NCBI GenBank assembly: GCA_021018815.1
Contig: JAITYX010000066.1
Coordinates: 3,508,001 to 3,572,000, forward strand
Reading direction: 5' to 3'
Source: Talinum fruticosum
Lineage: Eukaryota > Streptophyta > Magnoliopsida > Caryophyllales > Talinaceae
DNA: 64,000 nucleotides
Part shown: piece by piece, positions 9,159 to 46,231 of the stretch
Position numbering within the stretch: the first letter of the stretch is position 1
How the letters are laid out: the number at the start of each line of letters is the position of its first letter
Translations under genes and position numbers: made by a program
The notes under the pieces: model-generated
What the model saw: only the letters and a program-made list of their open reading frames with translations
What the model was told of the DNA's origin: nothing
Databases searched by the model: none

Positions 9159-9160
<2 letters not shown>
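8372..9160. other. Intergenic, nothing recognised
   Basis: AT-rich sequence without a supported gene. Confidence 0.5.

Positions 9161-9161
<1 letters not shown>

Positions 9162-9236
<75 letters not shown>
9162..9236. repeat. (TA)n microsatellite at the left junction of the viral array
   Basis: About 75 bp of pure TA, followed at 9237 by 'gaccggactagagc', a sequence found internally at 14909, 20583 and 26519. The microsatellite therefore abuts the viral array. Confidence 0.95.
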
Positions 9237-9239
<3 letters not shown>

Positions 9240-9881
9240 CGGACTAGAGCTTGGGGACGAAGCTCGGGATACTGTTTGTGGTGGAGTAGCAGGGGAGATA
9301 GGAGGACAAATTATTTTAACAAATTGAACTTTCTAAAACAAAAGATTGAAATCAGGAAATTGAAAATAAACGAAAGTAATTGAAATAGAGAAGATAGAAT
9401 TGAATCAAAACTTACTTTGATTGATAATGAAAATTGATACAAAGATTTGGATAGTGCTCTCTGAGAGAGGTTGGATACAATGAGTGTTTTGGGAGTAGGG
9501 ATAGAAGGCAAGTGTTTGCTTGTGTGAGTGAGCAAGTGGTTTTTTTCCGATGCCTCCCTAATGAGAAGTGAATACATATTTATAATAAAACAAAATGAAT
9601 AATCGTCGCACACTTGGACGGTTGAGAGTCTTGACTGGAATGGAATCTTGATCTTCAAAAATCTTCCGACAATGTTGAATTATTGGAACAGTCTTGATTA
9701 GACAAAAGTATGAGTAGTGTTTGAATAGTAAAATCCATTATGAAAAGTCACATGGATTTTTACTATTGTTATTGACAAATCCTTGCATAATTGCTCGCTT
9801 TTGACAAAATGGCACCTGCGTCCATTAATCCAAAACAAACTTGTCTTCTTGAAATAGTGTCCCCGAATAGTAAGTGAATAG
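9237..9881 (-). repeat. Quasi-terminal repeat (QTR) copy 1, 3' end of array
   Basis: About 645 bp nearly identical to 14909-15552, 20583-21226 and 26519-27161. It begins (minus strand) just after a polypurine tract and ends about 12 bp before the primer-site position of a following unit, so it spans the same interval as an LTR. It holds a TATA-like box. It is the right-hand neighbour of the left (TA)n tract. Confidence 0.85.
9578..9585 (-). promoter_or_regulatory. Candidate TATA box of the viral promoter (QTR copy 1)
   Basis: Minus-strand 'TATAAATA' is the best TATA match in the QTR and is conserved in the other three copies (for example 15249-15256 and 26858-26865). The copy at 26858 would drive the array; the others would drive internal units. 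Transcription start is not determined. Confidence 0.5.
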
Positions 9882-9888
9882 TAACATC

Positions 9889-9904
9889 CACTTCCTTCCC
9901 GGGG
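9889..9904 (-). promoter_or_regulatory. Candidate polypurine tract (plus-strand primer), unit A
   Basis: Minus-strand 'GGGAAGGAAGTGG' lies just upstream of the QTR start and is repeated in units B and C. The right-hand end of the whole array falls about 10 bp downstream of this position, which supports its role as a priming site. An A-rich run at 9976-9995 is the alternative. Confidence 0.45.
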
Positions 9905-10003
9905 CATTTTGAGAGGTGAAATGAGAAATTTCACCGAAGCAAAATATCGAATACCTGCACAAAAACGTTAGTTATAAAAAGTTTTTTTTTTTTTGAATCT
10001 CCT

Positions 10004-10384
10004 TTACGAATTATATATCGTAAGGATCTTGAGCACATGGCCCATCAAAAGGGTCATAATCGGATTGAATTTCCTCATCGGAACCAATACTTGGTTCCTT
10101 AAGAAGTAATTGCCGATGTTGTTTTTTGAGTAACATAATCTCTTTCTTGAGTAGTTGAATTTCTTCTTCTTGAATTTTTCTTTTCCTTTCGACGTTGTCT
10201 CTTTCTTCCGTGGAGTAGGTGGTGCTGGTTGAGTAGGTGGGGCTGTCTTTATTCCTAAAGCAGCTTTGAAATTGAAGCGTTCCCACCATTTGGTCTTGAA
10301 TTCACGAACTAATGAATAGGATGCTCGGGGGTTTGTAATGCTGGATAATTGAGAATGACAAACAAAGGATCCATGGGAATCCAT
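10004..10384 (-). CDS. Small 3' ORF of unit A: WW-containing N-terminus plus basic coiled coil
   Basis: The 126-codon frame starts with ATG at 10384 ('MDSHGSFVCHSQLS'). It has a 'REFKTKWWERFNF' motif at residues 27-39, a proline-rich linker and a Lys/Glu-rich tail. An overlapping frame (10289-10011) carries 'KKEIMLLKKQHRQLLL', a heptad-like coiled coil ending in an acidic patch 'SDEEIQSDYDPFDG'. Unit B has the N-terminus and coiled coil in one frame (15683-16057), so unit A is shifted by an indel. It follows RNase H with no overlap. I do not recognise the family; a virion-associated or transactivator-like accessory role is only a guess. Confidence 0.5.
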   Translation of the reverse strand: MDSHGSFVCHSQLSSITNPRASYSLVREFKTKWWERFNFKAALGIKTAPPTQPAPPTPRKKETTSKGKEKFKKKKFNYSRKRLCYSKNNIGNYFLRNQVLVPMRKFNPIMTLLMGHVLKILTIYNS

Positions 10385-10424
10385 ATTTTATACGGGAAAA
10401 GGTGTGAAAATGGAATTGGCAAAA

Positions 10425-10838
10425 TTAATCTTGAGAGTTAGAAGAGCCTTGAAGAAATTCTCTTGTTAAAAAATCAGGTAGAGAGTTATTTTCTCCTTTA
10501 ATAAATTCTATATCAAAATCAAAACAGGATAAAATTGCTTGCCAACGAGCAAATATTTGTTTGGAAACAAGATTTTGAACATCTTTGGTAATAATTTCTT
10601 TTGCTGATTTACAATCAATGCGAAGAAGGAATTTTTTATTAAATAAATCATCTTGAAATTTTGAAACGCATAAAACAATTGATAAAACTTCCTTTTTAAT
10701 AGTTGAATAATTTTTTGCGTTAGATTCCAGATTCTCGAATGGTACCTCACTAATTGAGTCTCGTTTGGAAGTTGTAGACATTTTTTGTTTTAATATACCA
10801 CCATATCCTAATTCGGATGCGTCTGTTTCAACTATCAT
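10425..10838 (-). CDS. RNase H domain of the viral polymerase, unit A
   Basis: This 137-codon frame is the RNase H part of the pararetroviral pol, which degrades the RNA strand during reverse transcription. Visible motifs: 'VETDASELGYGGIL' at the start with the first catalytic Asp, 'LLRIDCKSAKEI' with a second acidic residue in the middle, and 'IKGENNSLPDFLTRE' at the end with the last Asp. This is the Caulimoviridae form of the C-terminus. It is separated from the RT frame (11000 onward) by an out-of-frame connection region. No integrase follows; the next frame is the small WW ORF. Confidence 0.85.
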   Translation of the reverse strand: MIVETDASELGYGGILKQKMSTTSKRDSISEVPFENLESNAKNYSTIKKEVLSIVLCVSKFQDDLFNKKFLLRIDCKSAKEIITKDVQNLVSKQIFARWQAILSCFDFDIEFIKGENNSLPDFLTREFLQGSSNSQD

Positions 10839-10999
10839 CTGGATGTGGAATACCTAGACATGGTAAAGATTTAACTTTCTGTTTGAGAAGGCGTACTACT
10901 TGAGTATGTTCATCCGACCATGGTGGTGGGTTTTTGCGTAATCTTTTGTAAAGGGGCTGACAGATTTGCCTTAATTTTGGAAAGAAATCGGCCACATAA

Positions 11000-11816
11000 T
11001 TAAGACATCCTAAAAACCTCTCGTAGTTGAGTTTTATTAATTAATTTATCTGGAAATTTGTCCGCAAATTCAATGGCCCTAGTAATCGGTTTAATAGTTC
11101 CTTGATAAATATCATGTCCTAAAAATCTTATTTTAGTTTGGAATAGTTTGATTTTAGGTGCGTAAACAACTAAACCATTTTTCTTGATTATATGTAAAAA
11201 AGTTTGCAGATGTTTGAAATGTTGTTCAATATTATTTGAATAAACTAGAACATCATCAATATAAACTATTGTAAATTGAGTGTAAGGATTAAAAATATCA
11301 TTCATAATATGTTGAAATTCCGAAGGAGCATTTTTTAAGCCAAAAGGCATTACGTTCCATTCATAATGCCCGAAAGGAACAAGTAAAGGCTGTTTTATAA
11401 CGATCTTGATTAGCTATTTGGACTTGCCAAAAGCCACTTTTCATATCGAATTTTGAAAATATTTTTGCTTCGTAAAGTCTATTGAGTAAATCTCGTTTAT
11501 TAGGAATGGGATACCTAATCCATTGTAAAACTTTATTTAAAGGTTTATAATTAATAACTAGGCGAGGAACTCCTCGTTCCTTTCTCGCTTGATTATTGAC
11601 ATAGAAGGCCGCACGACTCCAAGGAGACTTAGAAGGCCTTATTAAGTTTTTATCTAAAAGTGATTGAATTTCCTTTTTACGGAATTCTAAAAGTTCTTTA
11701 TTCATTTGAATAGGTCGAGCTTTAGTAGGGATTTTATTTTCTGAAAATTCTTTTTCATAAGGAAGCGTGACAACATGCTTTTTCTTTCCCAAAAAGCATT
11801 GGGGAGATCGGAGCAT
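11000..11816 (-). pseudogene. Reverse transcriptase of unit A, frameshifted
   Basis: Two minus-strand frames make up one RT domain. The first (11816-11361) covers the fingers and start of the palm ('FSKFDMKSGFWQVQI' with the first catalytic Asp). The second (11350-11000) carries 'MPFGLKNAPSEFQ' and 'VYIDDVLVYS' with the YIDD active site at about 11250-11265. They are separated by a one-base shift near 11368, which is also present in unit B. A second indel near 11020 (CTCG here, CTG in unit B) ends the frame early in the thumb. The enzyme copies viral pregenomic RNA. Both breaks lie at CTG/CAG-like sites where copies disagree, so decay versus sequence error is open. Confidence 0.85.
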
Positions 11817-13161
11817 ACTTCTTTATGGAAAAGATTTTGTAATTCTTTAATTTTGTTTTGGATAGAAAGATTTTGTAATCTTTCCTCAATTCGTCTATAA
11901 GTAATTTCTTTTGAAGAAAATCAATTTGCTGCTTTTTTCTATTAATAAAATTTATTTGTTTGATTATAGTAGACTCCTGGAGTAAGGATAGATCTTTTGC
12001 ACGAATGGGAGAGATGAATTTGAAAGAAATAATTTTGCCCAAAATTTCCGTATGTATACCAATTTGGTCAACTTTGAAAGGATATATTTGAGTAATAAAA
12101 GGAGTACCTAAAATGACTTCTTGACCTATATCTTTAACAAGGATAAAAGTATTTTTAAAACAATATCCTTGATTACAAATATAAGCATTTGATATCTTGT
12201 ATTTGATTTGTAATGCCATTCCATTAGCACTATGAAGGCGTTCTTTGGTTTTCTCATAATAAATTGATGGAATTAAACCTTCTTTAATACAATTTTGATC
12301 TGCTCCACTATCAAGTAAAGCAATAGTATTGAACTCATAATTTTCATTAATTTTTAGAGTAATATGGATATACCATTTTTGATAATTTATATGGTTAATT
12401 GTTGAGATAAATAGTTGATTAGAAGAACTCGGAGTGTCTTCATTAATAGTTGGACTTTTTGATTTATTTTCTATTATTGACAGTTTTGTTTCTAATTCTA
12501 AGTCTTTAGTTTGAAGTAAACACAAATTTTGATTAATTTCTTTAATCTGTTCTTTAAGATTATTTATTTCCATTTTTAAATCTTGAATATTAACAACCTT
12601 TAAAATATTTGGGGTATCATATTTTTCAAATATTTTATTGATACTTAAACCTGGAGGAGGGGTTTTCAAAAGATCTTCTTTAATTAAAATACCTTTGAGT
12701 TTTTCTAAATATTCTCTTTTTAATTCAGGATCTTGAATTTGTTCAATTAAATCTATTAAAAATTCTTTTTCATTTTTAGTAGCATTAATCATATTAATAC
12801 ATTCATAAATTTTTGGGGACTCATCTCCCGATGAATAATTACTGGAATAATAAAGAAATTCTTTTTCATTAGAAATTTTATTAATATCGGTTGTTTCATG
12901 TTCTTCTTGAGAAATATCTAAAACATTAAGAGTGTTATTTGAACTAGAAGCTTGATTAAGTTTTTCATCTATTCTTTTAATTAATGGGCTATTGGGAATT
13001 TCTAAATTTTTGTTCTTGTTAAATTTAATGAGAGGAGAGGAAATATCATTAAGAAATATTGGTTTCTTTGAATCTCTGTTTAAATCTAAATTTTCCAATT
13101 TTTTGGATAATTGGTCAATATCTTCTTTCTTAGATATTGCCTCAATTTGAGTTGAAACCAT
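11755..13161 (-). CDS. Coiled-coil and aspartic protease region of the polyprotein, unit A
   Basis: 468 codons from ATG at 13161; the frame is open upstream to about 13263, so it may be entered from an upstream frame. Residues 1-90 are Lys/Asn/Ser-rich. A coiled coil lies near residues 190-230 ('LKMEINNLKEQIKEINQNL'). A retropepsin-like protease follows at about 270-390: 'FNTIALLDSGADQNC' with the catalytic DSGA, then 'VILGTPFITQIYPF'. The protease would process the polyprotein. The tail leaves the frame of RT by an indel. Unlike unit C, there is no capsid or CCHC knuckle: the frame passes straight from 'KISNEKEFLYYSS' to the coiled coil. Confidence 0.75.
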   Translation of the reverse strand: MVSTQIEAISKKEDIDQLSKKLENLDLNRDSKKPIFLNDISSPLIKFNKNKNLEIPNSPLIKRIDEKLNQASSSNNTLNVLDISQEEHETTDINKISNEKEFLYYSSNYSSGDESPKIYECINMINATKNEKEFLIDLIEQIQDPELKREYLEKLKGILIKEDLLKTPPPGLSINKIFEKYDTPNILKVVNIQDLKMEINNLKEQIKEINQNLCLLQTKDLELETKLSIIENKSKSPTINEDTPSSSNQLFISTINHINYQKWYIHITLKINENYEFNTIALLDSGADQNCIKEGLIPSIYYEKTKERLHSANGMALQIKYKISNAYICNQGYCFKNTFILVKDIGQEVILGTPFITQIYPFKVDQIGIHTEILGKIISFKFISPIRAKDLSLLQESTIIKQINFINRKKQQIDFLQKKLLIDELRKDYKIFLSKTKLKNYKIFSIKKYAPISPMLFGKEKACCHASL

Positions 13162-13252
13162 ATTGACTTGTTGCGAGACCGTATGTAAAACTTCATTAGT
13201 ATAATTGTTTTGATGATAAATCTTTTTAATGTCATCTAACTCTACTTGAGAG

Positions 13253-13921
13253 TTATCTCGGGTTATTTCTTCCTATTTTGAAAGGAGATGCAGGAATATG
13301 ACCTTGATCCGTAGGGATCAAAATCTCTTGCTTAGGAGGAGTTATTGCTATAACAATTTCTCCATTTTTTAATGTCCATTTTTTACTAAGATCAATATTA
13401 GTATTGATTTCTTTAATACCAAGAGGATCCGGTAATCTATGTTCTTGAGCAAAGATGGACCACCATGTAAAGAATCGGATATTGCATCCTAATCTTTCCA
13501 TTAGTGAATACCATTCTTGCCTAATGAAAGCTTGAGCTTTGAGATCGAAATGAGATAAAAACCATTCTTTTTTATCTCTATTTTCTATGGAATCGAAATC
13601 TTCTCTTAAAAAGTTTTTATTTATTGTAAAAGGTTCTGTAATAACATTAATTGAAGAGTAAGAAGGAGGTTGCATAACTGAATGAGTAGGAGAACCTATT
13701 GATGAACTGGTATCATCAACCGGTTCAACTATTGGTGATTTGTAATAAATTTTTGAGGAAGAGGAAGTTGAATTATCAACTTGATTATCCCTAAGAAAAT
13801 CATAATTAGTAGATCTTGAAGGCATAGAAAAGGAAGATCTAGGAAGATCTCTTTTCTCCGAAAGTTTTGAAGAAAAGGATCTTTCATTAATAGAGTTGAA
13901 TCTTATTAGTATTCTCGCCAT
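13253..13921 (-). CDS. ORF2 of unit A: Ser-rich N-terminus and WW-type C-terminal domain
   Basis: The first ATG is at 13921 ('MARILIRFNSINERS'), inside the end of the movement-protein frame, which stops at 13887 (35 bp overlap). Residues 20-75 are Ser/Thr/Asp-rich and look disordered. The C-terminal part has 'DKKEWFLSHFDLKAQAFI', 'CNIRFFTWWSIFAQEH' and 'KKWTLKNGEIVIAITPP'. I recognise this only as a block that follows the movement protein in plant endogenous pararetroviruses; its function is unknown. In unit C a CCG/CTCG difference at the junction puts the MP frame directly into this frame, so MP and ORF2 may belong to a single polyprotein. Confidence 0.6.
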   Translation of the reverse strand: MARILIRFNSINERSFSSKLSEKRDLPRSSFSMPSRSTNYDFLRDNQVDNSTSSSSKIYYKSPIVEPVDDTSSSIGSPTHSVMQPPSYSSINVITEPFTINKNFLREDFDSIENRDKKEWFLSHFDLKAQAFIRQEWYSLMERLGCNIRFFTWWSIFAQEHRLPDPLGIKEINTNIDLSKKWTLKNGEIVIAITPPKQEILIPTDQGHIPASPFKIGRNNPR

Positions 13922-14714
13922 CGTGCTCTTCAATAACTTGTTGAATATTCTTTTGAGCAATATTTCTAGGAGGCCTAATGTTTTGAATAATAAACTCTTG
14001 GGGAATGGTTATTTCATTCCACTTTAGTAATTTAGGAGTAAAGCTTGAGGTATTTTCTGATTCAATCTTTAATAATATTGTTTCATCCAAAGATGGCTTT
14101 AATAAACATTTTGGGTTCAAATGAGAAGATAAAAGCTTGAAATAAACTCTATAAGTAATAGCAAAATTTCTTGATAATTCTCTAAATAATACTTTTGAAT
14201 TACTTTGCATATGAATATCTAAAATTAAGGTGTCCATGATCCAGGGATCATTCAGATCTACTGAAAAGTTTGGACAACCATTGAAATATATTGGACCATT
14301 ACAAGTATTAGTTTGAATCATAGCTAATAAAGAGTCTTGATATCTAATTAATCTATTGTCTCTAAGTGCCATAAAGATAGGACAATCTAATCCTAGTCTT
14401 GTTAATGGCTTGAGTGCTATTTGAATCATACCAAAATGAATATATCTATATTTCTCTTTATATTTATTAATAGAAATATTAGATAATAACTTGATAGTTT
14501 GAAACTCTTCATCTAAGCTGAAGGTTTCTTCGTGATCTTTAATAGAGAAAGCAATGTTGAAATCAAACTTTCCTATTTGATAAATAGTTTCTATCTTTTG
14601 TTTTGGAATAGACCAATTTGAGAAATCAACTTGGCAGCTAACTTCTCTGCTATTGACTACATTAGTACTCTTGCTAGTTCCTAAACCTAGATGATCTCGT
14701 AACCAAGAGGCCAT
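13887..14714 (-). CDS. Movement protein (30K superfamily) of unit A
   Basis: 275 codons from the ATG at 14714 ('MASWLRDHLGLG'); an upstream in-frame GTG at 14717 is less likely. The central part, about residues 85-190, has the 30K movement-protein pattern: 'YRYIHFGMIQIALKPL', 'FMALRDNRLIRYQDSL' and 'FSVDLNDPWIMDTLILDI', ending with a 'NFAITYRVYFKLLS' strand. Such proteins modify plasmodesmata for cell-to-cell spread. Their presence separates plant pararetroviruses from LTR retrotransposons. It is the first ORF after the primer site and leader, and the frame is fully open here and in unit B. Confidence 0.85.
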   Translation of the reverse strand: MASWLRDHLGLGTSKSTNVVNSREVSCQVDFSNWSIPKQKIETIYQIGKFDFNIAFSIKDHEETFSLDEEFQTIKLLSNISINKYKEKYRYIHFGMIQIALKPLTRLGLDCPIFMALRDNRLIRYQDSLLAMIQTNTCNGPIYFNGCPNFSVDLNDPWIMDTLILDIHMQSNSKVLFRELSRNFAITYRVYFKLLSSHLNPKCLLKPSLDETILLKIESENTSSFTPKLLKWNEITIPQEFIIQNIRPPRNIAQKNIQQVIEEHDGENTNKIQLY

Positions 14715-14878
14715 CACAGCTTAAGCTTGACTACTTTGTCGCTAATTACGCACACACACTACCGGGACCACCGGACCACCCTCTACCGGGACCACCTTAC
14801 ACGGCTGACCAACGGATAACATGGGGCTGACCAACGGCCGACCAACGCTAGGCCTTACGGTGCAACAACAAAATAGAC
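14715..14878 (-). other. Leader between primer site and MP start, unit A, with GC-rich tandem motifs
   Basis: On the plus strand 'ctaccgggaccacc' occurs twice, with an extra 'ggaccacc' between, and 'ctgaccaacg' or 'ccgaccaacg' occurs three times. The same block is in the leaders of units B (20389-20553) and C (26325-26490). It is strikingly GC-rich compared with the AT-rich viral genes. A structured RNA element is possible but not shown. Confidence 0.6.
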
Positions 14879-14897
14879 AAACCTGGCTCCGATACCA
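14879..14897 (-). promoter_or_regulatory. Primer binding site (tRNA-iMet type), unit A
   Basis: Minus-strand 'TGGTATCGGAGCCAGGTTT' differs at one base from the expected complement of the plant initiator tRNA-Met 3' end. It lies about 12 bp downstream of the QTR and 165 bp upstream of the MP start, the usual position for minus-strand DNA priming. Confidence 0.85.
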
Positions 14898-14908
14898 ATT
14901 AGGGACAG

Positions 14909-15552
14909 GACCGGACTAGAGCTTGGGGACGAAGCTCGGGATACTGTTTGTGGTGGAGTAGCAGGGGAGATAGGAGGACAAATTATTTTAACAAATTGAA
15001 CTTTCTAAAACAAAAGATTGAAATCAGGAAATTGAAAATAAACGAAAGTAATTGAAATAGAGAAGATAGAATTGAATCAAAACTTACTTTGATTGATAAT
15101 GAAAATTGATACAAAGATTTGGATAGTGCTCTCCGAGAGAGGTTGGATACAATGAGTGTTTTGGGAGTAGGGATAGAAGGCAAGTGTTTGCTTGTGTGAG
15201 TGAGCAAGTGGTTTTTTTCCGATGCCTCCCTAATGAGAAGTGAATACATATTTATAATAAAACAAAATGAATAATCGTCGCACACTTGGACTGGTTGAGA
15301 GTCTTGACTGGAATGGAATCTTGATCTTCAAAAATCTTCCGACAATGTTGAATTATTGGAACAGTCTTGATTAGACAAAAGTATGAGTAGTGTTTGAATA
15401 GTAAAATCCATTATGAAAAGTCACATGGATTTTTACTATTGTTATTGACAAATCCTTGCATAATTGCTGCTTTTGACAAAATGGCACTCGCGTCCATTAA
15501 TCCAAAACAAACTTGTCTTCTTGAAATAGTGTCCCTGAATAGTAAGTGAATA
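14909..15552 (-). repeat. Quasi-terminal repeat copy 2, between units A and B
   Basis: About 644 bp, almost identical to the other three copies. It serves as 3' end of unit B and 5' end of unit A. TATA-like box at 15249-15256. Confidence 0.85.
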
Positions 15553-15682
15553 GTAACATCCACTTCCTTCCCGGGGCATTTTGAGAGGTGAAATGAGAAA
15601 TTTCACCGAAGCAAAATATCGAATACCTGCACAAAAACGTTAGTTATAAAAAGTTTTTTTTTTTTTGAATCTCCTTTACGAA

Positions 15683-16057
15683 TTATATATCGTAAGGATC
15701 TTGAGCACATGGCCCATCAAAAGGGTCATAATCGGATTGAATTTCCTCATCAGAACCAATACTTGGTTCCTTAAGAAGTAATTGCTGATGTTGTTTTTTG
15801 AGTAACATAATCTCTTTCTTGAGTAGTTGAATTTCTTCTTCTTGAATTTTTCTTTTCCTTTCGACGTTGTCTCTTTCTTCCGTGGAGTAGGTGGTGCTTG
15901 GTTGAGTAGGTGGGGCTGTCTTTATTCCTAAAGCGACTTTGAAATTGAAGCGTTCCCACCATTTGGTCTTGAATTCACGAACTAATGAATAGGATGTCTG
16001 AGGTTTGTAATGCTTGGATAATTGAGAATGACAAACAAAGGATCCATGGGAATCCAT
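15683..16057 (-). CDS. Small 3' ORF of unit B: WW motif and coiled coil in one frame
   Basis: 124 codons from ATG at 16057. Order: 'MDSHGSFVCHSQLS', 'REFKTKWWERFNF' (residues 27-39), proline-rich linker, basic coiled coil 'KKEIMLLKKQHQQLLL' and an acidic C-terminus 'SDEEIQSDYDPFDG'. This is the most complete version of the ORF; units A and C have a frameshift in the linker or coil. It follows RNase H and precedes the polypurine tract. No family recognised; the basic coiled coil with acidic tail suggests a small multimerising protein, which is inference. Confidence 0.55.
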   Translation of the reverse strand: MDSHGSFVCHSQLSKHYKPQTSYSLVREFKTKWWERFNFKVALGIKTAPPTQPSTTYSTEERDNVERKRKIQEEEIQLLKKEIMLLKKQHQQLLLKEPSIGSDEEIQSDYDPFDGPCAQDPYDI

Positions 16058-16097
16058 ATTTTATACGGGAAAAGGTGTGAAAATGGAATTGGCAAAA

Positions 16098-16511
16098 TTA
16101 ATCTTGAGAGTTAGAAGAGCCTTGAAGAAATTCTCTTGTTAAAAAATCAGGTAGAGAGTTATTTTCTCCTTTAATAAATTCTATATCAAAATCAAAACAG
16201 GATAAAATTGCTTGCCAACGAGCAAATATTTGTTTGGAAACAAGATTTTGAACATCTTTGGTAATAATTTCTTTTGCTGATTTACAATCAATGCGAAGAA
16301 GGAATTTTTTATTAAATAAATCATCTTGAAATTTTGAAACGCATAAAACAATTGATAAAACTTCCTTTTTAATAGTTGAATAATTTTTTTGCGTTAGATT
16401 CCGATTCTCGAATGGTACCTCACTAATTGAGTCTCGTTTGGAAGTTGTAGACATTTTTTGTTTTAATATACCACCATATCCTAATTCGGATGCGTCTGTT
16501 TCAACTATCAT
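16098..16511 (-). CDS. RNase H domain, unit B
   Basis: 137 codons, nearly identical to the unit A copy. Motifs are 'VETDASELGYGGIL', 'LLRIDCKSAKEI' and 'IKGENNSLPDFLTRE', so the acidic catalytic residues are kept. A local compensated indel pair changes a few residues near codon 37 ('NRNLTQKNYST' against 'NLESNAKNYST' in unit A). It acts with the upstream RT during genome replication. Confidence 0.85.
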   Translation of the reverse strand: MIVETDASELGYGGILKQKMSTTSKRDSISEVPFENRNLTQKNYSTIKKEVLSIVLCVSKFQDDLFNKKFLLRIDCKSAKEIITKDVQNLVSKQIFARWQAILSCFDFDIEFIKGENNSLPDFLTREFLQGSSNSQD

Positions 16512-16568
16512 CTGGATGTGGAATACCTAGACATGGTAAAGATTTAACTTTCTGTTTGAGAAGGCGTA

Positions 16569-17488
16569 CTACTTGAGTATGTTCATCCGACCATGGTGGT
16601 GGGTTTTTGCGTAATCTTTTGTAAAGGGGCCGACGATTTGCCTTAATTTTGGAAAGAAATCGGCCACATAATTAAGACATCCTAAAAACCTCTGTAGTTG
16701 AGTTTTATTAATTAATTTATCCGGAAATTTGTCCGCAAATTCAATGGCCCTAGTAATCGGTTTAATAGTTCCTTGATAAATATCATGTCCTAAAAATCTT
16801 ATTTTAGTTTGGAATAGTTTGATTTTAGGTGCAGAAACAACTAAACCATTTTTCTTGATTATATGTAAAAAGTTTGCGAGATGTTTGAAATGTTGTTCAA
16901 TATTATTTGAATAAACTAGAACATCATCAATATAAACTATTGTAAATTGAGTGTAAGGATTAAAAATATCATTCATAATATGTTGAAATTCCGAAGGAGC
17001 ATTTTTTAAGCCAAAAGGCATTACGTTCCATTCATAATGCCCGAAAGGAACAAGTAAAGGCTGTTTTATAACGATCTTGATTAGCTATTTGGACTTGCCA
17101 AAAGCCACTTTTCATATCGAATTTTGAAAATATTTTTGCTTCGTAAAGTCTATTGAGTAAATCTCGTTTATTAGGAATGGGATACCTAATCCATTGTAAA
17201 ACTTTATTTAAAGGTTTATAATTAATAACTAGGCGAGGAACTCCTCGTTCCTTTTCTCGCTTGATTATTGACATAGAAGGCCGCACAGCTCCAAGGAGAC
17301 TTAGAAGGCCTTATTAAGTTTTTATCTAAAAGTGATTGAATTTCCTTTTTACGGAATTCTAAAAGTTCTTTATTCATTTGAATAGGTCGAGCTTTAGTAG
17401 GGATTTTATTTTCTGAAAATTCTTTTTCATAAGGAAGCGTGACAACATGCCTTTTTCTTTCCCAAAAGCATTGGGGAGATCGGAGCAT
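16569..17488 (-). pseudogene. Reverse transcriptase of unit B, frameshifted
   Basis: Three frames tile one RT domain: 17488-17222 (entry and fingers, 'KNLIRPSKSPWSCAAFYV'), 17286-17032 ('FSKFDMKSGFWQVQI') and 17021-16569 ('MPFGLKNAPSEFQ', 'VYIDDVLVYS', and a thumb that continues to 'RFLGCLNYVADFFPKL'). The break near 17048 is shared with unit A. The break near 17250 is unique to B, while B keeps the thumb that is broken in A. Thus the two tandem copies are broken at different places, mostly at CTG/CAG-like sites or homopolymers. Confidence 0.85.
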
Positions 17489-18909: not shown

Positions 18910-19001
18910 CTAACTCTACTTGAGAGTTATCTCGGGTTATTTCTTCCTATTTTGAAAGGAGATGCGAGAATATGACCTTGATCCGTAGGGATCAAAATCT
19001 C

Positions 19002-19595
19002 TTACTTAGGAGGAGTTATTGCTATAACAATTTCTCCATTTTTTAATGTCCATTTTTTACTAAGATCAATATTAGTATTGATTTCTTTAATACCAAGAGG
19101 ATCCGGTAATCTATGTTCTTGAGCAAAGATGGACCACCATGTAAAGAATCGGATATTGCATCCTAATCTTTCCATTAGTGAATACCATTCTTGCCTAATG
19201 AAAGCTTGAGCTTTGAGATCGAAATGAGATAAAAACCATTCTTTTTTATCTCTATTTTCTATGGAATCGAAATCTTCTCTTAAAAAGTTTTTATTTATTG
19301 TAAAAGGTTCTGTAATAACATTAATTGAAGAGTAAGAAGGAGGTTGCATAACTGAATGAGTAGGAGAACCTATTGATGAACTGGTATCATCAACCGGTTC
19401 AGCTATTGGTGATTTGTAATAAATTTTTGAGGAAGAGGAAGTTGAATTATCAACTTGATTATCCCTAAGAAAATCATAATTAGTAGATCTTGAAGGCATA
19501 GAAAAGGAAGATCTAGGAAGATCTCTTTTCTCCGAAAGTTTTGAAGAAAAGGATCTTTCATTAATAGAGTTGAATCTTATTAGTATTCTCGCCAT
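19002..19595 (-). CDS. ORF2 of unit B (Ser-rich, WW-type), early stop
   Basis: ATG at about 19595 corresponds to 13921 in unit A. The frame has the same 'CNIRFFTWWSIFAQEH' block but stops at 19002 after 'IVIAITPPK', because the codon corresponding to the Gln after this Lys in unit A is a stop here (single-base change). Function unknown. It overlaps the end of the movement protein frame. Confidence 0.6.
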   Translation of the reverse strand: MARILIRFNSINERSFSSKLSEKRDLPRSSFSMPSRSTNYDFLRDNQVDNSTSSSSKIYYKSPIAEPVDDTSSSIGSPTHSVMQPPSYSSINVITEPFTINKNFLREDFDSIENRDKKEWFLSHFDLKAQAFIRQEWYSLMERLGCNIRFFTWWSIFAQEHRLPDPLGIKEINTNIDLSKKWTLKNGEIVIAITPPK

Positions 19596-20388
19596 CGTGC
19601 TCTTCAATAACTTGTTGAATATTCTTTTGAGCAATATTTCTAGGAGGCCTAATGTTTTGAATAATAAACTCTTGGGGAATGGTTATTTCATTCCACTTTA
19701 GTAATTTAGGAGTAAAGCTTGAGGTATTTTCTGATTCAATCTTTAATAATATTGTTTCATCCAAAGATGGCTTTAATAAACATTTTGGGTTCAAATGAGA
19801 AGATAAAAGCTTGAAATAAACTCTATAAGTAATAGCAAAATTTCTTGATAATTCTCTAAATAATACTTTTGAATTACTTTGCATATGAATATCTAAAATT
19901 AAGGTGTCCATGATCCAGGGATCATTCAGATCTACCGAAAAGTTTGGACAACCATTGAAATATATTGGACCATTACAAGTATTAGTTTGAATCATAGCTA
20001 ATAAAGAGTCTTGATATCTAATTAATCTATTGTCTCTAAGTGCCATAAAGATAGGACAATCTAATCCTAGTCTTGTTAATGGCTTGAGTGCTATTTGAAT
20101 CATACCAAAATGAATATATCTATATTTCTCTTTATATTTATTAATAGAAATATTAGATAATAACTTGATAGTTTGAAACTCTTCATCTAAGCTGAAGGTT
20201 TCTTCGTGATCTTTAATAGAGAAAGCAATGTTGAAATCAAACTTTCCTATTTGATAAATAGTTTCTATCTTTTGTTTTGGAATAGACCAATTTGAGAAAT
20301 CAACTTGGCAGCTAACTTCTCTGCTATTGACTACATTAGTACTCTTGCTAGTTCCTAAACCTAGATGATCTCGTAACCAAGAGGCCAT
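19561..20388 (-). CDS. Movement protein of unit B
   Basis: 275 codons from ATG at 20388; identical in protein sequence to the unit A movement protein over its full length as read here. Same 30K-family motifs ('YRYIHFGMIQIALKPL', 'FSVDLNDPWIMDTLILDI'). Preceded by the GC-rich leader and the primer site. Confidence 0.85.
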   Translation of the reverse strand: MASWLRDHLGLGTSKSTNVVNSREVSCQVDFSNWSIPKQKIETIYQIGKFDFNIAFSIKDHEETFSLDEEFQTIKLLSNISINKYKEKYRYIHFGMIQIALKPLTRLGLDCPIFMALRDNRLIRYQDSLLAMIQTNTCNGPIYFNGCPNFSVDLNDPWIMDTLILDIHMQSNSKVLFRELSRNFAITYRVYFKLLSSHLNPKCLLKPSLDETILLKIESENTSSFTPKLLKWNEITIPQEFIIQNIRPPRNIAQKNIQQVIEEHDGENTNKIQLY

Positions 20389-20553
20389 CACAGCTTAAGC
20401 TTGACTACTTTGTCGCTAATTACGCACACACACTACCGGGACCACCGGGACCACCCTCTACCGGGACCACCTTACACGGCTGACCAACGGATAACATGGG
20501 GCTGACCAACGGCTGACCAACGCTAGGCCTTACGGTGCAACAACAAAATAGAC

Positions 20554-20571
20554 AAACCTGGCTCGATACCA
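20554..20571 (-). promoter_or_regulatory. Primer binding site, unit B (one base missing)
   Basis: Minus-strand 'TGGTATCGAGCCAGGTTT' lacks one base compared with unit A and with the expected tRNA-iMet complement. Same position relative to QTR and leader. Confidence 0.8.
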
Positions 20572-20582
20572 ATTAGGGACAG

Positions 20583-21226
20583 GACCGGACTAGAGCTTGG
20601 GGACGAAGCTCGGGATACTGTTTGTGGTGGAGTAGCAGGGGAGATAGGAGGACAAATTATTTTAACAAATTGAACTTTCTAAAACAAAAGATTGAAATCA
20701 GGAAATTGAAAATAAACGAAAGTAATTGAAATAGAGAAGATAGAATTGAATCAAAACTTACTTTGATTGATAATGAAAATTGATACAAAGATTTGGATAG
20801 TGCTCTCCGAGAGAGGTTGGATACAATGAGTGTTTTGGGAGTAGGGATAGAAGGCAAGTGTTTGCTTGTGTGAGTGAGCAAGTGATTTTTTTCCGATGCC
20901 TCCCTAATGAGAAGTGAATACATATTTATAATAAAACAAAATGAATAATCGTCGCACACTTGGACTGGTTGAGAGTCTTGACTGGAATGGAATCTTGATC
21001 TTCAAAAATCTTCCGACAATGTTGAATTATTGGAACAGTCTTGATTAGACAAAAGTATGAGTAGTGTTTGAATAGTAAAATCCATTATGAAAAGTCACAT
21101 GGATTTTTACTATTGTTATTGACAAATCCTTGCATAATTGCTGCTTTTGACAAAATGGCACCTGCGTCCATTAATCCAAAACAAACTTGTCTTCTTGAAA
21201 TAGTGTCCCTGAATAGTAAGTGAATA
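20583..21226 (-). repeat. Quasi-terminal repeat copy 3, between units B and C
   Basis: About 644 bp, nearly identical to the other QTR copies although units B and C differ strongly in their middles. This common end is the main reason for regarding C as a component of the same virus. Confidence 0.85.
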
Positions 21227-21350
21227 GTAACATCCACTTCCTTCCCGGGGCATTTTGAGAGGTGAAATGAGAAATTTCACCGAAGCAAAATATCGAATAC
21301 CTGCACAAAAACGTTAGTTATAAAAAGTTTTTTTTTTTTTTGAATCTCCT

Positions 21351-21730
21351 TTACGAATTATATATCGTAAGGATCTTGAGCACATGGCCCATCAAAAGGG
21401 TCATAATCGGATTGAATTTCCTCATCGTAACCAATACTTGGTTCCTTAAGAAGTAATTGCTGATGTTGTTTTTGAGTAACATAATCTCTTTCTTGAGTAG
21501 TTGAATTTCTTCTTCTTGAATTTTTCTTTTCCTTTCGACGTTGTCTCTTTCTTCCGTGGAGTAGGTGGTGCTGGTTGAGTAGGTGGGGCTGTCTTTATTC
21601 CTAAAGCAGCTTTGAAATTGAAGCGTTCCCACCATTTGATCTTGAATTCACGAACTAATGAATAGGATGTCTGGGGTTTGTAATGCTTGGATAATTGAGA
21701 ATGACCAGCAAAGGATCCAAGGAAATCCAT
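21351..21730 (-). pseudogene. Small 3' ORF of unit C (WW motif), frameshifted in the coiled coil
   Basis: ATG at 21730 gives 'MDFLGSFAGHSQLS', then 'REFKIKWWERFNF' and a basic tail. The coiled-coil part is in another frame (21635-21351), as in unit A. Compared with A/B, the first codons differ while the rest is almost identical. The block of high identity with units A and B starts at about 21720 and runs through the QTR. Confidence 0.55.
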
Positions 21731-21751
21731 ATTTTTGTGGAATAAGATTTT

Positions 21752-22560
21752 TTAAGATCCGGACTCGCTAGTTGAGGTGTTTGAATAGCCGATGAAGTGT
21801 TTTTGCACTTCCTCCGGCCAAATATCTTGAAGCGATCCCATGGTTATCCACCATTCGTAAAACCAAATGGGAAATTGAGTATCTGTTTTTGTATCAAAGC
21901 ATATGAACCATGAATGATTGAAAGGTCTCGTAGAAGAATGTGAAATACCGGGCTTTTTCATAGTCGACATAATTATAACCCGGTGGGTTGAATGGTTGAG
22001 AAAATGATTTAATTGTATATTTGTCACCAAATTCTTTATTAGTAAGAATCTTGAGAATTCGTAACTTGGAGTAGGCAATTTGGTTTGTATTGGTTTTGTC
22101 GGTACATGCTCAATAAGAGCAGATTTTGAATCAACACGAATGTATTCATAAAAGGTTCTTGTTTTGAGAGGGTTATCATGAATAAAGAAACATTCAGGTT
22201 TGAATGTTGTTTTGACAAGTTCATTGAGTGTGGAAAGGTTTTGAGGTTGCCTATATTTAGTGTAGGCAATGTGTTCTTTATTTGGTTTTGTAAAATATTT
22301 TGAATCAAAAGAAGAGTTCGAATTGATGGTTTTTGATATTTTGTAGAAACTCGAGCATAAGAAAGAGAGGGAAAATCCTGTTTTGCAAAACTTGAAATGT
22401 ATTGGTAGTTGGTATTGAGATTTGCGAAGGAGTAATTGGTCTCGATTGCATAATGAAGAGGAGTTTGAATCTTTCGTTCTTTGTCTTGACTCATGGCTGA
22501 AAAGAAAGAATCTTTATTAAGAAGCATATTGATAAAACAATGTTTTGAGAATGAATCTTT
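21752..22560 (-). CDS. Unrecognised ORF region of unit C, replacing RT and RNase H
   Basis: Two minus-strand frames: the end of 22752-22039 after the protease ('RKIQTPLHYAIETNYSFA', 'SYQ/YQYISSFAKQDFPSL' type blocks) and 22078-21752 ('MPTPSYEFSRFLLIKN', 'NHSWFICFDTKTDTQFP', 'IWFYEWWITMG'). Together they span about 260 codons that have no counterpart in units A and B. The region lies exactly where A and B have RT and RNase H. The 'WFYEWW' block resembles in style the WW motifs of ORF2 and of the small 3' ORF, which hints at a shared protein module. No polymerase motif (YIDD, DAS) is present. I do not recognise the family. Confidence 0.55.
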
Positions 22561-22579
22561 CGAAAGTATGGAAGATATA

Positions 22580-23357
22580 AATTTAAAGGAAATACATTTT
22601 TCATGAATGTATGTATGAATACCAGATGTATCAACTTGAAATGGATAAATTTGGGTAATGAATGGGGTTCCTAATATAACTTCTTGACCTATGTCCCGGA
22701 CTAAGACAAAAGTGTTCTTGAAATGATATCCTTGATTGCAGTACATAGACATTTGATAGCTTGTATTGAATTTGTAATGCTATTCCATTAGCACTATGGA
22801 GTCGCTTCTTTAGTTTACTCATAATAAATTGATGGAATTAAACCTTCCTTAATACAATTTTGATCTGCTCCACTATCAAGTAAAGCAATAGTATTGAACT
22901 CATAATTTTCATTAATTTTTAGAGTAATATGGATATACCATTTTTGATAATTTATATGGTTAATTGTTGAGATAAATAGTTGATTAGAAGAACTCGGAGT
23001 GTCTTCATTAATAGTTGGACTTTTTGATTTGTTTTCTATTATTGACAGCTTTGTTTCTAATTCTAAGTCTTTAGTTTGAAGTAAACACAAATTTTGATTA
23101 ATTTCTTTAATCTGTTCTTTAAGATTATTTATTTCCATTTTTAAATCTTGAATATTAACAACCTTTAAAATATTTGGGGTATCATATTTTTCAAATATTT
23201 TATTGATACTTAAACCTGGAGGAGGGGTTTTCAAAAGATCTTCTTTAATTAAAATACCTTTGAGTTTTTCTAAATATTCTCTTTTTAATTCGAGATCCGG
23301 AATTTGTTCTATCGGATCTATAAGGAATTCTTTTTCATTCTTTGTAGTATTGATCAT
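22580..23357 (-). pseudogene. Coiled-coil and aspartic protease region of unit C, frameshifted
   Basis: Frame 23357-22815 carries the coiled coil and 'FNTIALLDSGADQNC' (active site at about 22863-22890). After a frameshift near 22825, the flap and C-terminal half continue in 22752-22580 ('VILGTPFITQIYPF'). The first part is almost identical to units A and B, while the part left of about 22830 is clearly diverged. The switch from near-identity to divergence within one domain points to recombination or gene conversion. Confidence 0.75.
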
Positions 23358-23399
23358 ATTAATGCATTTATAACAAATTCTTGAGGACTCATTTCCGAT

Positions 23400-24420
23400 G
23401 AATAATTACTTGAATCACTATCTAACTCATAAAGATTATTATCTTCGTGGTCGAAGATGAATTGTCCGAGTTAACTGGAGTATCTTTGAGTTCAAATAAA
23501 GAAATAATTTTTTCTTTAATTTCTTGATTATCTTCACAAATTTCATTTAATTTTTCTTTAACTTTGCAATTTTTTGCATAATGACCTTGTTTTCCACATT
23601 TGAAACAAGTGGGTTTATTAGTAGTTTTCTTATTTGGAATTTTTTTCTTGGGAGCAATATTCGTTTTGTTATTACGATTGAATTGTTTCCTTTTATTTAG
23701 TTGATTAACTTTTCTTTTTGAACTGATGGTGCAACAGGTTGTGGAATACAAAAGGCTTCACAAAAGGATCCTAACTCCTTTCTTGTAGCTGCTTTATCTC
23801 GTTGAATATCTTGCTTGTAATTTTAATTCATTGCATAGAGAAATACCTTCTTTTTAATGAATCCTAATAACCGGCCAAATATGATTTGATCATATGGAAT
23901 TGGATCTTGCCCTGTAACATCTTTTAGTTTTTTGAATATTCTTTGGGAGAAAAGATTTGGTAATCTTGAGATAAATTTCTCTTTCCAATATGGTTGGCGA
24001 CAATCTTGTCTTTTTAATAGATATGAAAAATATGTATCTTTATACCAATTGTAATCTTCTAATCTGGAGCATCTAAGGTTGGTTAAGAGGATTTCTTGGC
24101 CACTTAACATATCCTTTGGAGTTCCTAGAAGATTGACAACTATTGTATGGACTAATGTGTAGACGGCTTCTTTATGATTTTTAATGCTCGGACGTTCTTC
24201 GTCTCGTCATGTAATTTTCCCACCAAGATTTTAAAGATCCGGTGAAACCTGAGATTAATAAATCAAAAGCTTGAGTTTCTGGAGCTCCTTTAGATGTATA
24301 GGCAGCATATGCCATCATCATCCTATGTAGAATAATTAATGCCTCATGTTCGGATTTTCCATCTAGATTTCATTCATAGATGGAGCCACCATCAAAGGCT
24401 TCGTAACTATTGTTTTAATT
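23400..24420 (-). pseudogene. Capsid-like region with CCHC zinc knuckle, unit C only
   Basis: Frame 24110-23823 holds 'LEDYNWYKDTYFSYLLKR', 'YWKEKFISRLPNLF' and 'IPYDQIIFGRLLGFI', the pattern of a pararetroviral capsid C-terminal half. Frame 23751-23422 follows with a basic stretch and the zinc knuckle 'CFKCGKQGHYAKNC' (C-x2-C-x4-H-x4-C, about 23565-23606). Upstream frames to about 24420 are broken. Capsid protein packages the viral RNA and the knuckle binds nucleic acid. Units A and B have nothing equivalent: there the flanking sequences are joined directly. Several stops and shifts are present. Confidence 0.75.
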
Positions 24421-24424
24421 GATT

Positions 24425-24769
24425 CTAATTGAAGATCCGGAGGGGTACTTCTAGAGTAGTAAGGAAATTCTTTTTGTTTGAAATTTTATTAATATCTGAT
24501 ATTTCTTGTTCTTCTGGGGAAATATCTAAAACATTAAGAGTGTTATTTGAACTAGAAGCTTGATTAAGTTTTTCATCTATTCTTTTAATTAATGGGCTAT
24601 TGGGAATTTCTAAATTTTTGTTCTTGTTAAATTTAATGAGAGGAGAGGAAATATCATTAAGAAATATTGGTTTCTTTGAATCTCTGTTTAAATCTAAATT
24701 TTCCAATTTTTTGGATAATTGGTCAATATCTTCTTTCTTAGATATTGCCTCAATTTGAGTTGAAACCAT
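24425..24769 (-). CDS. N-terminal part of the unit C polyprotein region before the capsid
   Basis: Starts at ATG 24769 ('MVSTQIEAISKKEDIDQ'), the same start as the coiled-coil/protease frame of units A and B, and is nearly identical for about 95 codons. It then diverges at about 24480 ('ISNKKNFLTT') where the capsid block begins. This gives one border of the module exchange. Confidence 0.6.
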   Translation of the reverse strand: MVSTQIEAISKKEDIDQLSKKLENLDLNRDSKKPIFLNDISSPLIKFNKNKNLEIPNSPLIKRIDEKLNQASSSNNTLNVLDISPEEQEISDINKISNKKNFLTTLEVPLRIFN

Positions 24770-24860
24770 ATTGACTTGTTGCGAGACCGTATGTAAAACT
24801 TCATTAGTATAATTGTTTTGATGATAAATCTTTTTAATGTCATCTAACTCTACTTGAGAG

Positions 24861-25525
24861 TTATCTCGGGTTATTTCTTCCTATTTTGAAAGGAGATGCA
24901 GGAATATGACCTTGATCCGTAGGGATCAAAATCTCTTGCTTAGGAGGAGTTATTGCTATAACAATTTCTCCATTTTTTAATGTCCATTTTTTACTAAGAT
25001 CAATATTAGTATTGATTTCTTTAATACCAAGAGGATCTGGTAATCTATGTTCTTGAGCAAAGATGGACCACCATGTAAAGAATCGGATATTGCATCCTAA
25101 TCTTTCCATTAGTGAATACCATTCTTGCCTAATGAAAGCTTGAGCTTTGAGATCGAAATGAGATAAAAACCATTCTTTTTTATCTCTATTTTCTATGGAA
25201 TCGAAATTTTCTCTTAAAAAGTTTTTATTTATTGTAAAAGGTTCCGTAATAACATTAATTGAAGAGTAAGAAGGAGGTTGCATAACTGAATGAGTAGGAG
25301 AACCTATTGATGAACTGGTATCATCAACCGGTTCAGCTATTGGTGATTTGTAATAAATTTTTGAGGAAGAGGAAGTTGAATTATCAACTTGATTATCCCT
25401 AAGATAATCATAATTAGTAGATCTTGAAGGCATAGAAAAGGAAGATCTAAGAAGATCTCTTTTCTCTCGAAAGTTTTGAAGAAAAGGATCTTTCATTAAT
25501 AGAGTTGAATCTTATTAGTATTCCG
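24861..25525 (-). CDS. ORF2 of unit C (Ser-rich, WW-type)
   Basis: The frame 25496-24861 has the same C-terminal block ('CNIRFFTWWSIFAQEH') and ends 'KIGRNNPR' as in unit A. Its beginning is disturbed by an indel near 25470, and the original start region (about 25525) is fused in frame to the movement protein. Function unknown. Confidence 0.6.
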
Positions 25526-26324
25526 CCATCGGGCTCTTCAATAACTTGTTGAATATTCTTTTGAGCAATATTTCTAGGAGGCCTAATGTTTTGAATAATA
25601 AACTCTTGGGGAATGGTTATTTCATTCCACTTTAGTAATTTAGGAGTAAAGCTTGAGGTATTTTCCGATTCAATCTTTAATAATATTGTTTCATCCAAAG
25701 ATGACTTTAATAAACATTTTGGGTTCAAATGAGAAGATAAAAGCTTGAAATAAACTCTATAAGTAATAGCAAAATTTCTTGATAATTCTCTAAATAATAC
25801 TTTTGAATTACTTTGCATATGAATATCTAAAATTAAGGTGTCCATGATCCAGGGATCATTCAGATCTACCGAAAAGTTTGGACAACCATTGAAATATATT
25901 GGACCATTACAAGTATTAGTTTGAATCATAGCTAATAAAGAGTCTTGATATCTAATTAATCTATTGTCTCTAAGTGCCATAAAGATAGGACAATCTAATC
26001 CTAGTCTTGTTAATGGCTTGAGTGCTATTTGAATCATACCAAAATGAATATATCTATATTTCTCTTTATATTTATTAATAGAAATATTAGATAATAACTT
26101 GATAGTTTGAAACTCTTCATGTAAGTCTGAAGGTTTCTTCGTGATCTTTAATAGAGAAAGCAGTGTTGAAATCAAACTTTCCTATTTGATAAATAGTTTC
26201 TATCTTTTGTTTTGGAATAGACCAATTTGAGAAATCAACTTGGCAGCTAACTTCTCTGCTATTGACCACATTAGTACTCTTGCTAGTTCCTAAACCTAGA
26301 TGATCTCAGTAACCAAGAGGCCAT
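25500..26324 (-). pseudogene. Movement protein of unit C, frameshifted near its start
   Basis: ATG at 26324, but an extra base near 26308 ('ctcagtaacc' against 'ctcgtaacc' in A and B) and differences near 26122 break the first third. From 26120 down the frame is open and nearly identical to units A and B ('YRYIHFGMIQIALKPL', 'FSVDLNDPWIMDTLILDI'). At its 3' end, 'attccgcc' replaces 'attctcgcc', so this frame runs into ORF2 ('GGILIRFNSINERS') instead of stopping. Confidence 0.8.
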
Positions 26325-26490
26325 CACAGCTTAAGCTTGACTACTTTGTCGCTAATTACGCACACACACTACCGGGACCACCGGGACCACCCTCTACCGG
26401 GACCACCTTACACGGCTGACCAACGGATAACATGGGGCTGACCAACGGCCGACCAACGCTAGGCCTTACTGTGCAACAACAAAATAGACA

Positions 26491-26507
26491 AATCTGGCTC
26501 GATACCA
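26491..26507 (-). promoter_or_regulatory. Primer binding site, unit C (variant)
   Basis: Minus-strand 'TGGTATCGAGCCAGATT' lacks one base and carries a substitution compared with unit A. Same spacing to the QTR. Confidence 0.75.
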
Positions 26508-26518
26508 ATTAGGGACAG

Positions 26519-27155
26519 GACCGGACTAGAGCTTGGGGACGAAGCTCGGGATACTGTTTGTGGTGGAGTAGCAGGGGAGATAGGAGGACAAATTATTTTA
26601 ACAAATTGAACTTTCTAAAACAAAAGATTGAAATCAGGAAATTGAAAATAAACGAAAGTAATTGAAATAGAGAAGATAGAATTGAATCAAAACTTACTTT
26701 GATTGATAATGAAAATTGATACAAAGATTTGGATAGTGCTCTCCGAGAGAGGTTGGATACAATGAGTGTTTTGGGAGTAGGGATAGAAGGCAAGTGTTTG
26801 CTTGTGTAAGTGAGCAAGTGATTTTTTCCGATGCCTCCCTAATGAGAAGTGAATACATATTTATAATAAAACAAAATGAATAATCGTCGCACACTTGGAC
26901 GGTTGAGAGTCTTGACTGGAATGGAATCTTGATCTTCAAAAATCTTCCGACAATGTTGAATTATTGAAACAGATCTTGATTAGACAAAAGTATGAATAGT
27001 GTTTGAATAGTAAAATCCATTATGAAAAGTCACATGGATTTTTACTATTGTTATTGACAAATCCTTGCATAATTGCTGCTTTTGACAAAATGGCACTCGC
27101 GTCCATTAATCCAAAACAAACTTGTCTTCTTGAAATAGTGTCCCTGAATAGTAAG

Positions 27156-27161
<6 letters not shown>
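26519..27161 (-). repeat. Quasi-terminal repeat copy 4, 5' end of array
   Basis: About 643 bp, nearly identical to copies 1-3. It ends at 'gtaagtgaata' and passes directly into the right (TA)n tract. In the internal copies this point is about 10 bp from the polypurine tract. Its promoter (TATA-like box 26858-26865) would drive the whole array. Confidence 0.85.

Positions 27162-27226
<65 letters not shown>
27160..27226. repeat. (TA)n microsatellite at the right junction of the viral array
   Basis: About 67 bp of TA directly next to QTR copy 4, mirroring the left tract. Confidence 0.95.
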
Positions 27227-27229
<3 letters not shown>

Positions 27230-31300: not shown

Positions 31301-31384
<84 letters not shown>

Positions 31385-46200: not shown

Positions 46201-46231
46201 TCTAGTGGAAGTAAGATATAACGGATATCCA

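What the first reader, a model, noticed from the sequence alone, without database searches (positions are those of the whole stretch)
9237..27161. Two complementary genome types of one pararetrovirus in a single array
Seen: units A and B encode MP, ORF2, protease, RT and RNase H but no capsid or CCHC knuckle. Unit C has near-identical QTR, leader, MP, ORF2 and 3' small ORF, carries capsid-like sequence with a CCHC knuckle and an unknown ORF, and has no RT or RNase H. Known: a bipartite genome organisation has been reported for some florendoviruses. Inference: A/B and C are two components of a split-genome virus, integrated together. Neither unit alone has a full gene set. The alternative is that both are deletion derivatives of one full-length genome.
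Basis: partly seen in the sequence, partly recalled or inferred. Interest (0 to 1): 0.9.

Follow-up and report, generated by a model that had tools for sequence, protein, structure and literature searches.

The report
Two-part endogenous plant pararetrovirus array
A decayed plant virus sits in this DNA as three linked copies of two kinds, one with the polymerase genes and no coat protein and one with the coat protein and no polymerase; this split layout is already described for some florendoviruses, and this array is probably one more case of it.

Summary
A 17,925-bp array lies on the minus strand between two (TA)n repeats: a leading QTR copy, unit C (5,936 bp), B (5,674), A (5,672). A and B carry MP, DUF7588, protease, RT and RNase H but no coat domain. 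C carries MP, DUF7588, coat domains, zinc knuckle and protease, but no convincing RT or RNase H. Every unit has broken frames.

The alternative of simple recent deletions fits poorly. B and C are about 98.6-98.9% identical in three shared blocks, yet 50-column windows bordering the missing segments fall to 66-86%. In one border, differences crowd into third codon positions (15/9/37). So the two kinds had separate coding histories and became alike in blocks, by viral recombination or by later conversion in the array.

The layout matches components A and B of the bipartite florendoviruses (Geering et al. 2014), including compound insertions and (TA)n sites. A possible difference: A and B keep only a ~125-aa stub of the last ORF, C a longer form.

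Host, genus and genome-wide census could not be tested. Probably a new member of a known kind.

The parts
9237..27161 (-). whole array: QTR - unit C - unit B - unit A, read on the minus strand from 27161 to 9237
   Evidence: self-comparison; length 17,925
9162..9236 (.). (TA)n microsatellite, 37.5 copies, at one end of the array
27159..27226 (.). (TA)n microsatellite, 34 copies, at the other end
26519..27161 (-). leading terminal repeat (QTR) copy, 643 bp; other copies 20583-21226, 14909-15552, 9237-9880
   Evidence: pairwise identity 98.75-99.53%
20583..26518 (-). unit C, 5,936 bp, coat-bearing kind (component-B-like)
14909..20582 (-). unit B, 5,674 bp, RT-bearing kind (component-A-like)
9237..14908 (-). 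unit A, 5,672 bp, RT-bearing kind (component-A-like)
14886..14897 (-). tRNA-Met-type primer binding site of unit A; one-base-shorter versions of B and C at 20561-20571 and 26497-26507
   Evidence: one mismatch to a recalled 12-mer; eight other places in 8,500-28,000 match within 3 mismatches, none that well. B and C versions read by eye from the sequence printed
13887..14717 (-). MP, unit A (unit B 19561-20391; unit C in two frames, 26117-26305 and 25447-26181)
   Evidence: PF01107 E 1.1e-16 in A and 3.9e-16 in a C piece; B by tblastn; runs
13253..13960 (-). DUF7588 segment, unit A (B 19002-19634; C 24861-25511)
   Evidence: PF24496 E 2e-15 in A, 1.4e-14 in C; B by tblastn
17374..18909 (-). 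coiled region + aspartic protease, unit B, one 511-codon open run that crosses the point where C has its coat region; unit A counterpart 11755-13272 (505 codons)
   Evidence: PF00077 in A and B
16569..17488 (-). RT, unit B, in several frames (unit A about 10899-11822)
   Evidence: PF00078 in two A pieces; B by tblastn
16098..16511 (-). RNase H, unit B (unit A 10425-10838)
   Evidence: PF17917 E 3.2e-16 in A; B 96% identical
23422..24369 (-). coat region of unit C: DUF7746 (24181-24369), Caulimovir_coat_dom (23823-24206), zinc knuckle (23422-23757), in more than one frame
   Evidence: PF24925 E 8.6e-18 and PF22909 E 4.7e-8; PF00098 E 2.6e-6
22631..23405 (-). protease region of unit C, split between frames; 23264-22815 is a near-identical block to B, both borders diverged
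21752..22513 (-). C-only reading frame, 253 codons, followed in the same frame after one stop by the run with the shared small ORF: probable front part of the last (ORF2-like) protein
   Evidence: no Pfam match; identity with florendovirus ORF2 is inference
15683..16057 (-). shared 3' small ORF, unit B (A 10004-10384; C 21351-21751 in several frames)

Best explanation
A compound insertion of a florendovirus-like endogenous pararetrovirus whose genome existed as two components sharing the intergenic region (promoter, leader, primer site), MP, DUF7588, protease core and the tail of the last ORF. Component 1 (units A, B) supplied RT and RNase H. Component 2 (unit C) supplied the coat protein and the long form of the last ORF. 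DNA of both kinds was joined head to tail and captured at a (TA)n site. Shown: gene sets, shared blocks, tandem order, (TA)n flanks, mosaic divergence, and third-position bias in one border. Inferred: that the two kinds replicated together by complementation; that the alike blocks come from copy-choice recombination between them; capture during break repair; florendovirus membership.
For: Complementary gene sets. QTR copies 98.75-99.53% identical. B and C differ at 5 of 450 sites in the protease core but at 82 of 404 in its two borders, Fisher p 8e-23; the fewest differences in any 400-column window of that alignment, 2, was reached in 0 of 10,000 shuffles. In the 3' border the differences by codon position are 15/9/37, p 2.3e-5, so the kinds diverged while this stretch was coding. 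The coat-less join in A and B lies inside open runs of 505 and 511 codons. Geering et al. report components of 5.5-6.9 kbp with these gene sets, intergenic region >90% and MP >87% identical, compound A+B insertions and a (TA)n bias.
Against: No second locus, host genome or relative could be examined; one array cannot show that the two kinds recur independently. Every unit is broken, so no function can be read directly. The 5' border of the protease core gave no significant third-position bias (6/4/11, p 0.16), and differences in the shared blocks are too few to test (MP 5, DUF7588 7, core 4). Conversion between tandem units after integration could also have made the alike blocks; A and B themselves differ unevenly (8 in about 2,900 sites against 36 in about 2,750, p 1.1e-5; counts, test). 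Published component A keeps an ORF2; A and B here keep only a stub.
Confidence: 0.68

Rival explanations
1. Both kinds are simple deletion derivatives (defective genomes) of one full-length virus that supplied everything in trans; the array is a by-product.
For: Each kind lacks a segment at a definite place; defective genomes of this sort need no special biology; a helper cannot be excluded from one locus, and Geering et al. also leave a helper open.
Against: Recent deletions predict even identity up to the breakpoints; instead the border windows are 66-86% identical between blocks of about 98.6-98.9%, with third-position bias in one border. C also has about 800 bp in place of RT-RNase H that A and B lack.
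Confidence: 0.17
2. Unit C comes from a second, related virus species; recombination with the A/B virus gave it the same QTR, MP, protease core and tail. A mixed infection, not a stable two-part genome.
For: The borders of C's own regions are markedly diverged from A/B while the rest is nearly identical.
Against: C shows no convincing RT or RNase H, so in this form it could not have been self-sufficient. Published component B sequences are also described as substantially diverged outside MP (PMC9719215), so divergence does not set C apart.
Confidence: 0.1
3. Post-integration origin: different integrants lay side by side, and unequal crossing over plus gene conversion duplicated A/B and made the shared blocks alike.
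For: A and B end the MP run and begin the DUF7588 run at the same places and are nearly identical; identity between them is uneven.
Against: A and B are broken at different places in RT; the joins between units read through the primer site in the same way, as expected for circular or terminally redundant viral DNA.
Confidence: 0.05

Closest known systems
Bipartite florendoviruses, components A and B (VvinBV, VvinDV, OsatBV, SbicV; Geering et al. 2014, PMC4241990)
   Same: Component A lacks all or part of the coat domain; component B has MP, CP and AP and lacks RT; shared intergenic region and MP; 5.5-6.9 kbp; compound A+B insertions; (TA)n sites.
   Different: Here A and B hold only a ~125-aa stub of the last ORF and C a longer one. 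Published component B lacks only the N-terminal portion of RNase H; here only a weak trace (E 0.15) is seen. Sequence relationship not tested.
Florendoviruses of sugar beet with bipartite layout (as cited in review PMC10377300)
   Same: Reported there as additional evidence of bipartite florendoviruses (passage).
   Different: The original paper could not be opened; no comparison made.
Petunia vein clearing virus / petuviruses
   Same: MP, CP, AP, RT and RH domains in one large polyprotein in PVCV; tandem integrants with QTRs (recalled, from no call).
   Different: PVCV has its domains in one component and is told from florendoviruses by lacking the second ORF.

Membership tests
Caulimoviridae (endogenous) | 30K-type MP, caulimovirid coat domain, AP, RT and RNase H | tested here: met
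   PF01107, PF22909, PF24925, PF00077, PF00078, PF17917, spread over two kinds of unit
Caulimoviridae (endogenous) | tRNA-Met primer binding site | tested here: met
   12-mer (recalled) with one mismatch at 14886-14897 in A; one-base-shorter versions in B and C read by eye
Florendovirus | falls in the florendovirus clade in an AP-RT-RH tree | not testable with these tools
Florendovirus | second ORF of 45-58 kDa specific to the genus | tested here: inconclusive
   C has a 253-codon run and the small-ORF run in one frame with one stop between; A and B only ~125 aa; homology to ORF2 not testable
Bipartite florendovirus | component A lacks coat; component B has MP, CP and AP and lacks RT | tested here: met
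Bipartite florendovirus | intergenic region >90% and MP >87% identical between components | tested here: met
   QTR copies 98.75-99.53%; MP 5 differences in 758 sites, B against C
Bipartite florendovirus | many independent integrants of both components in the genome | not testable with these tools
Bipartite florendovirus | component B keeps the C-terminal part of RNase H | tested here: inconclusive
   only a 21-residue match at E 0.15 in C
Petuvirus | all domains in one component | tested here: not met
   no unit has both coat and RT; sequence-level membership not testable

The most novel reading that the evidence does not exclude
A further origin of a two-part pararetrovirus in which not only coat against RT/RNase H but also the last ORF is divided (long form only on the coat component), the parts being kept compatible by recurrent recombination over shared blocks. 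The array would then record in one locus both components and the recombination tracts that held them together.
Probability: 0.3. Interest if true: 0.65.

Novelty: new member of a known kind. Interest (0 to 1): 0.5.

Why it matters
Geering et al. call bipartite genomes unique among viral retroelements and know no divided genome in an extant caulimovirid, so the evidence is fossil. An array with both kinds side by side, sharing blocks of near-identity between diverged borders, gives an internal test of deletion derivative against co-evolving component that needs no reconstructed genome.

Tried and rejected
Relatives: the search for related loci in viral contigs with MP, an RT fragment and a coat fragment gave 15, 17 and 21 pattern matches but no confirmed relative. 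One degenerate RT-motif pattern gave 0 matches in viral contigs, and a slightly longer form of it 0 in genome contigs (bacterial and archaeal genomes). These show no match at that sensitivity, not that no relative exists. The fold of an RT fragment was poor (mean pLDDT 39.1) and was not used for a fold search. The idea that the C-only region encodes two overlapping proteins was looked at: the double-open stretch is unusual, but a frame break inside one long gene could explain it as well. A first Fisher test on rounded counts was replaced by exact counts. Two literature searches were answered and ten failed, so no claim is made that this array, or more of its kind, is absent from print.
Full report
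What is there. On the minus strand, from 27161 down to 9237, lies an array of 17,925 bp: a 643-bp repeat copy, unit C (26518-20583), unit B (20582-14909) and unit A (14908-9237). The longest self-match, 6,837 bp at 99.15%, pairs 9237-16062 with 14909-21735, that is A and the start of B with B and the start of C. C shares 24451-27161 with the other units at about 98.4-98.5%, 20583-21735 with A at 98.5%, and 22555-23415 at about 89%. Both ends abut (TA)n repeats, 37.5 and 34 copies. The array ends 11 bases short of the place where each unit has its tRNA-Met-type primer site, so the 643-bp repeat behaves like a long terminal repeat ending beside the primer site. The primer site was found with a recalled 12-mer; in 8,500-28,000 the best match (one mismatch) is at 14886, eight other places match within three mismatches, and the versions of B and C are one base shorter and were read by eye. 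A TATA-like sequence can be read in the repeat at about 15256-15249 (not tested).

Gene content. Pfam gives MP, DUF7588, retropepsin, RT and RNase H on pieces of unit A, retropepsin on the one piece of B scanned, and MP, DUF7588, DUF7746, Caulimovir_coat_dom and zf-CCHC on pieces of unit C. The protease piece of C scores 19.7 bits against a cut-off of 20.7 but matches B's protease region at 94%. With 12 window pieces against the whole window at E up to 1e-3, coat and knuckle pieces hit only C, RT and RNase H pieces only A and B, and no piece hit anywhere outside the array. With 8 pieces against the three units at E up to 10, composition adjustment off, the strongest off-target values were 0.009 and 0.032 (knuckle piece in the coil region of A and B) and 0.058 and 0.079 (same piece elsewhere in C), 0.10 (coat piece in A and B), 0.12 (RNase H piece in C's coat region) and 0.15 (21 residues of the RNase H end in C). 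The last may be the remnant that published component B retains, but it is too weak to claim.

State of the genes. No unit has an intact ORF1. Open runs of at least 55 codons change frame several times in every unit. A and B end the MP run and begin the DUF7588 run at the same offsets; C also changes frame there, but its MP run ends at another point. A and B are broken at different places in RT. The coat-less join in A and B sits inside one open run of 505 and 511 codons, so the frame is kept across it; by chance alone that would happen about one time in three. In C the 253-codon C-only run is followed in the same frame, after one stop, by the run that carries the start of the shared small ORF. 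I read these as one last protein, of which A and B keep the rear; that it is florendovirus ORF2 is inference from position.

Deletion derivative or separate component. If C and A/B were recent deletions of one genome, identity should be even up to the breakpoints. It is not. In 50-column steps, B against C falls from 50 of 50 to 43 and 35 before the coat region (then 9 of 28 where homology ends); after it runs 41, 41, 43, then nine windows of 48-50, then 43, 39, 37, 37, 33 and 8 of 10 toward the RT gap; and at the tail goes from 19 (no homology) and 43 to 47-50 (the last window there, 19 of 24, is cut by the piece's end). Exact counts: 21 of 146, 5 of 450 and 61 of 258 differences in 5' border, core and 3' border; core against borders p 8e-23. 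A 400-column window with only 2 differences was matched in 0 of 10,000 shuffles. Over whole regions B and C are 98.58% (5' block) and 98.87% (tail) identical. In the 3' border differences by codon position are 15/9/37 (p 2.3e-5); in the 5' border 6/4/11 (p 0.16, not significant); in the shared blocks too few to tell. So the two kinds diverged as coding sequence and later came to share alike blocks. Viral copy-choice recombination explains this simply; conversion inside the array is not excluded. A and B themselves differ unevenly, 8 in about 2,900 sites against 36 in about 2,750.

Comparison. Geering et al. 2014 (PMC4241990; outline and abstract, passages, section 6, section 24, section 12 part 1; the rest not seen) describe components of 5.5-6.9 kbp. 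Component A lacks all or part of the coat domain; component B has MP, CP and AP, lacks RT and the front of RNase H, and has a C-terminal extension homologous to the ORF2 protein of component A. They report near-identical intergenic regions, compound A+B insertions and a (TA)n bias, from V. vinifera, O. sativa and S. bicolor, with three independent origins. The review PMC10377300 (passages) adds sugar beet. CAULIFINDER (PMC9719215; [quoted passage not shown] Diop et al. (PMC5766536; passages) was seen for genus context. The layout here therefore matches a known kind. The possible difference is the divided last ORF. Genus, host and recurrence were not testable here.

Judgement. The added value is the internal mosaic, which weighs against the deletion-derivative alternative from a single locus.

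Noticed in passing
22042-22513 (-): 472 bases of unit C are open in two frames at once; 0 of 1000 dinucleotide shuffles reach it, and 14 and 3 of 5000 codon-order shuffles. It may be an overlapping gene or a frame break inside one long gene.
   Followed up: partly
9237-9880, 14909-15552, 20583-21226, 26519-27161: Among the four repeat copies all 8 substitution columns are transitions (4 further columns are indels), as would be expected of methylated, silenced DNA.
   Followed up: partly
17374-18909 (-): The unit B protease reads DSR where A and C read DSG at the presumed active site; the motif's role is recalled.
   Followed up: no
46230-49136: Tandem copies about 720-730 bp apart at roughly 93.5-95.5% identity, with copia-type RT (RVT_2) fragments in them: a locally repeated piece of a retrotransposon.
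   Followed up: no
31302-31380: A further (TA)n microsatellite (39.5 copies); no viral piece matched there.
   Followed up: no
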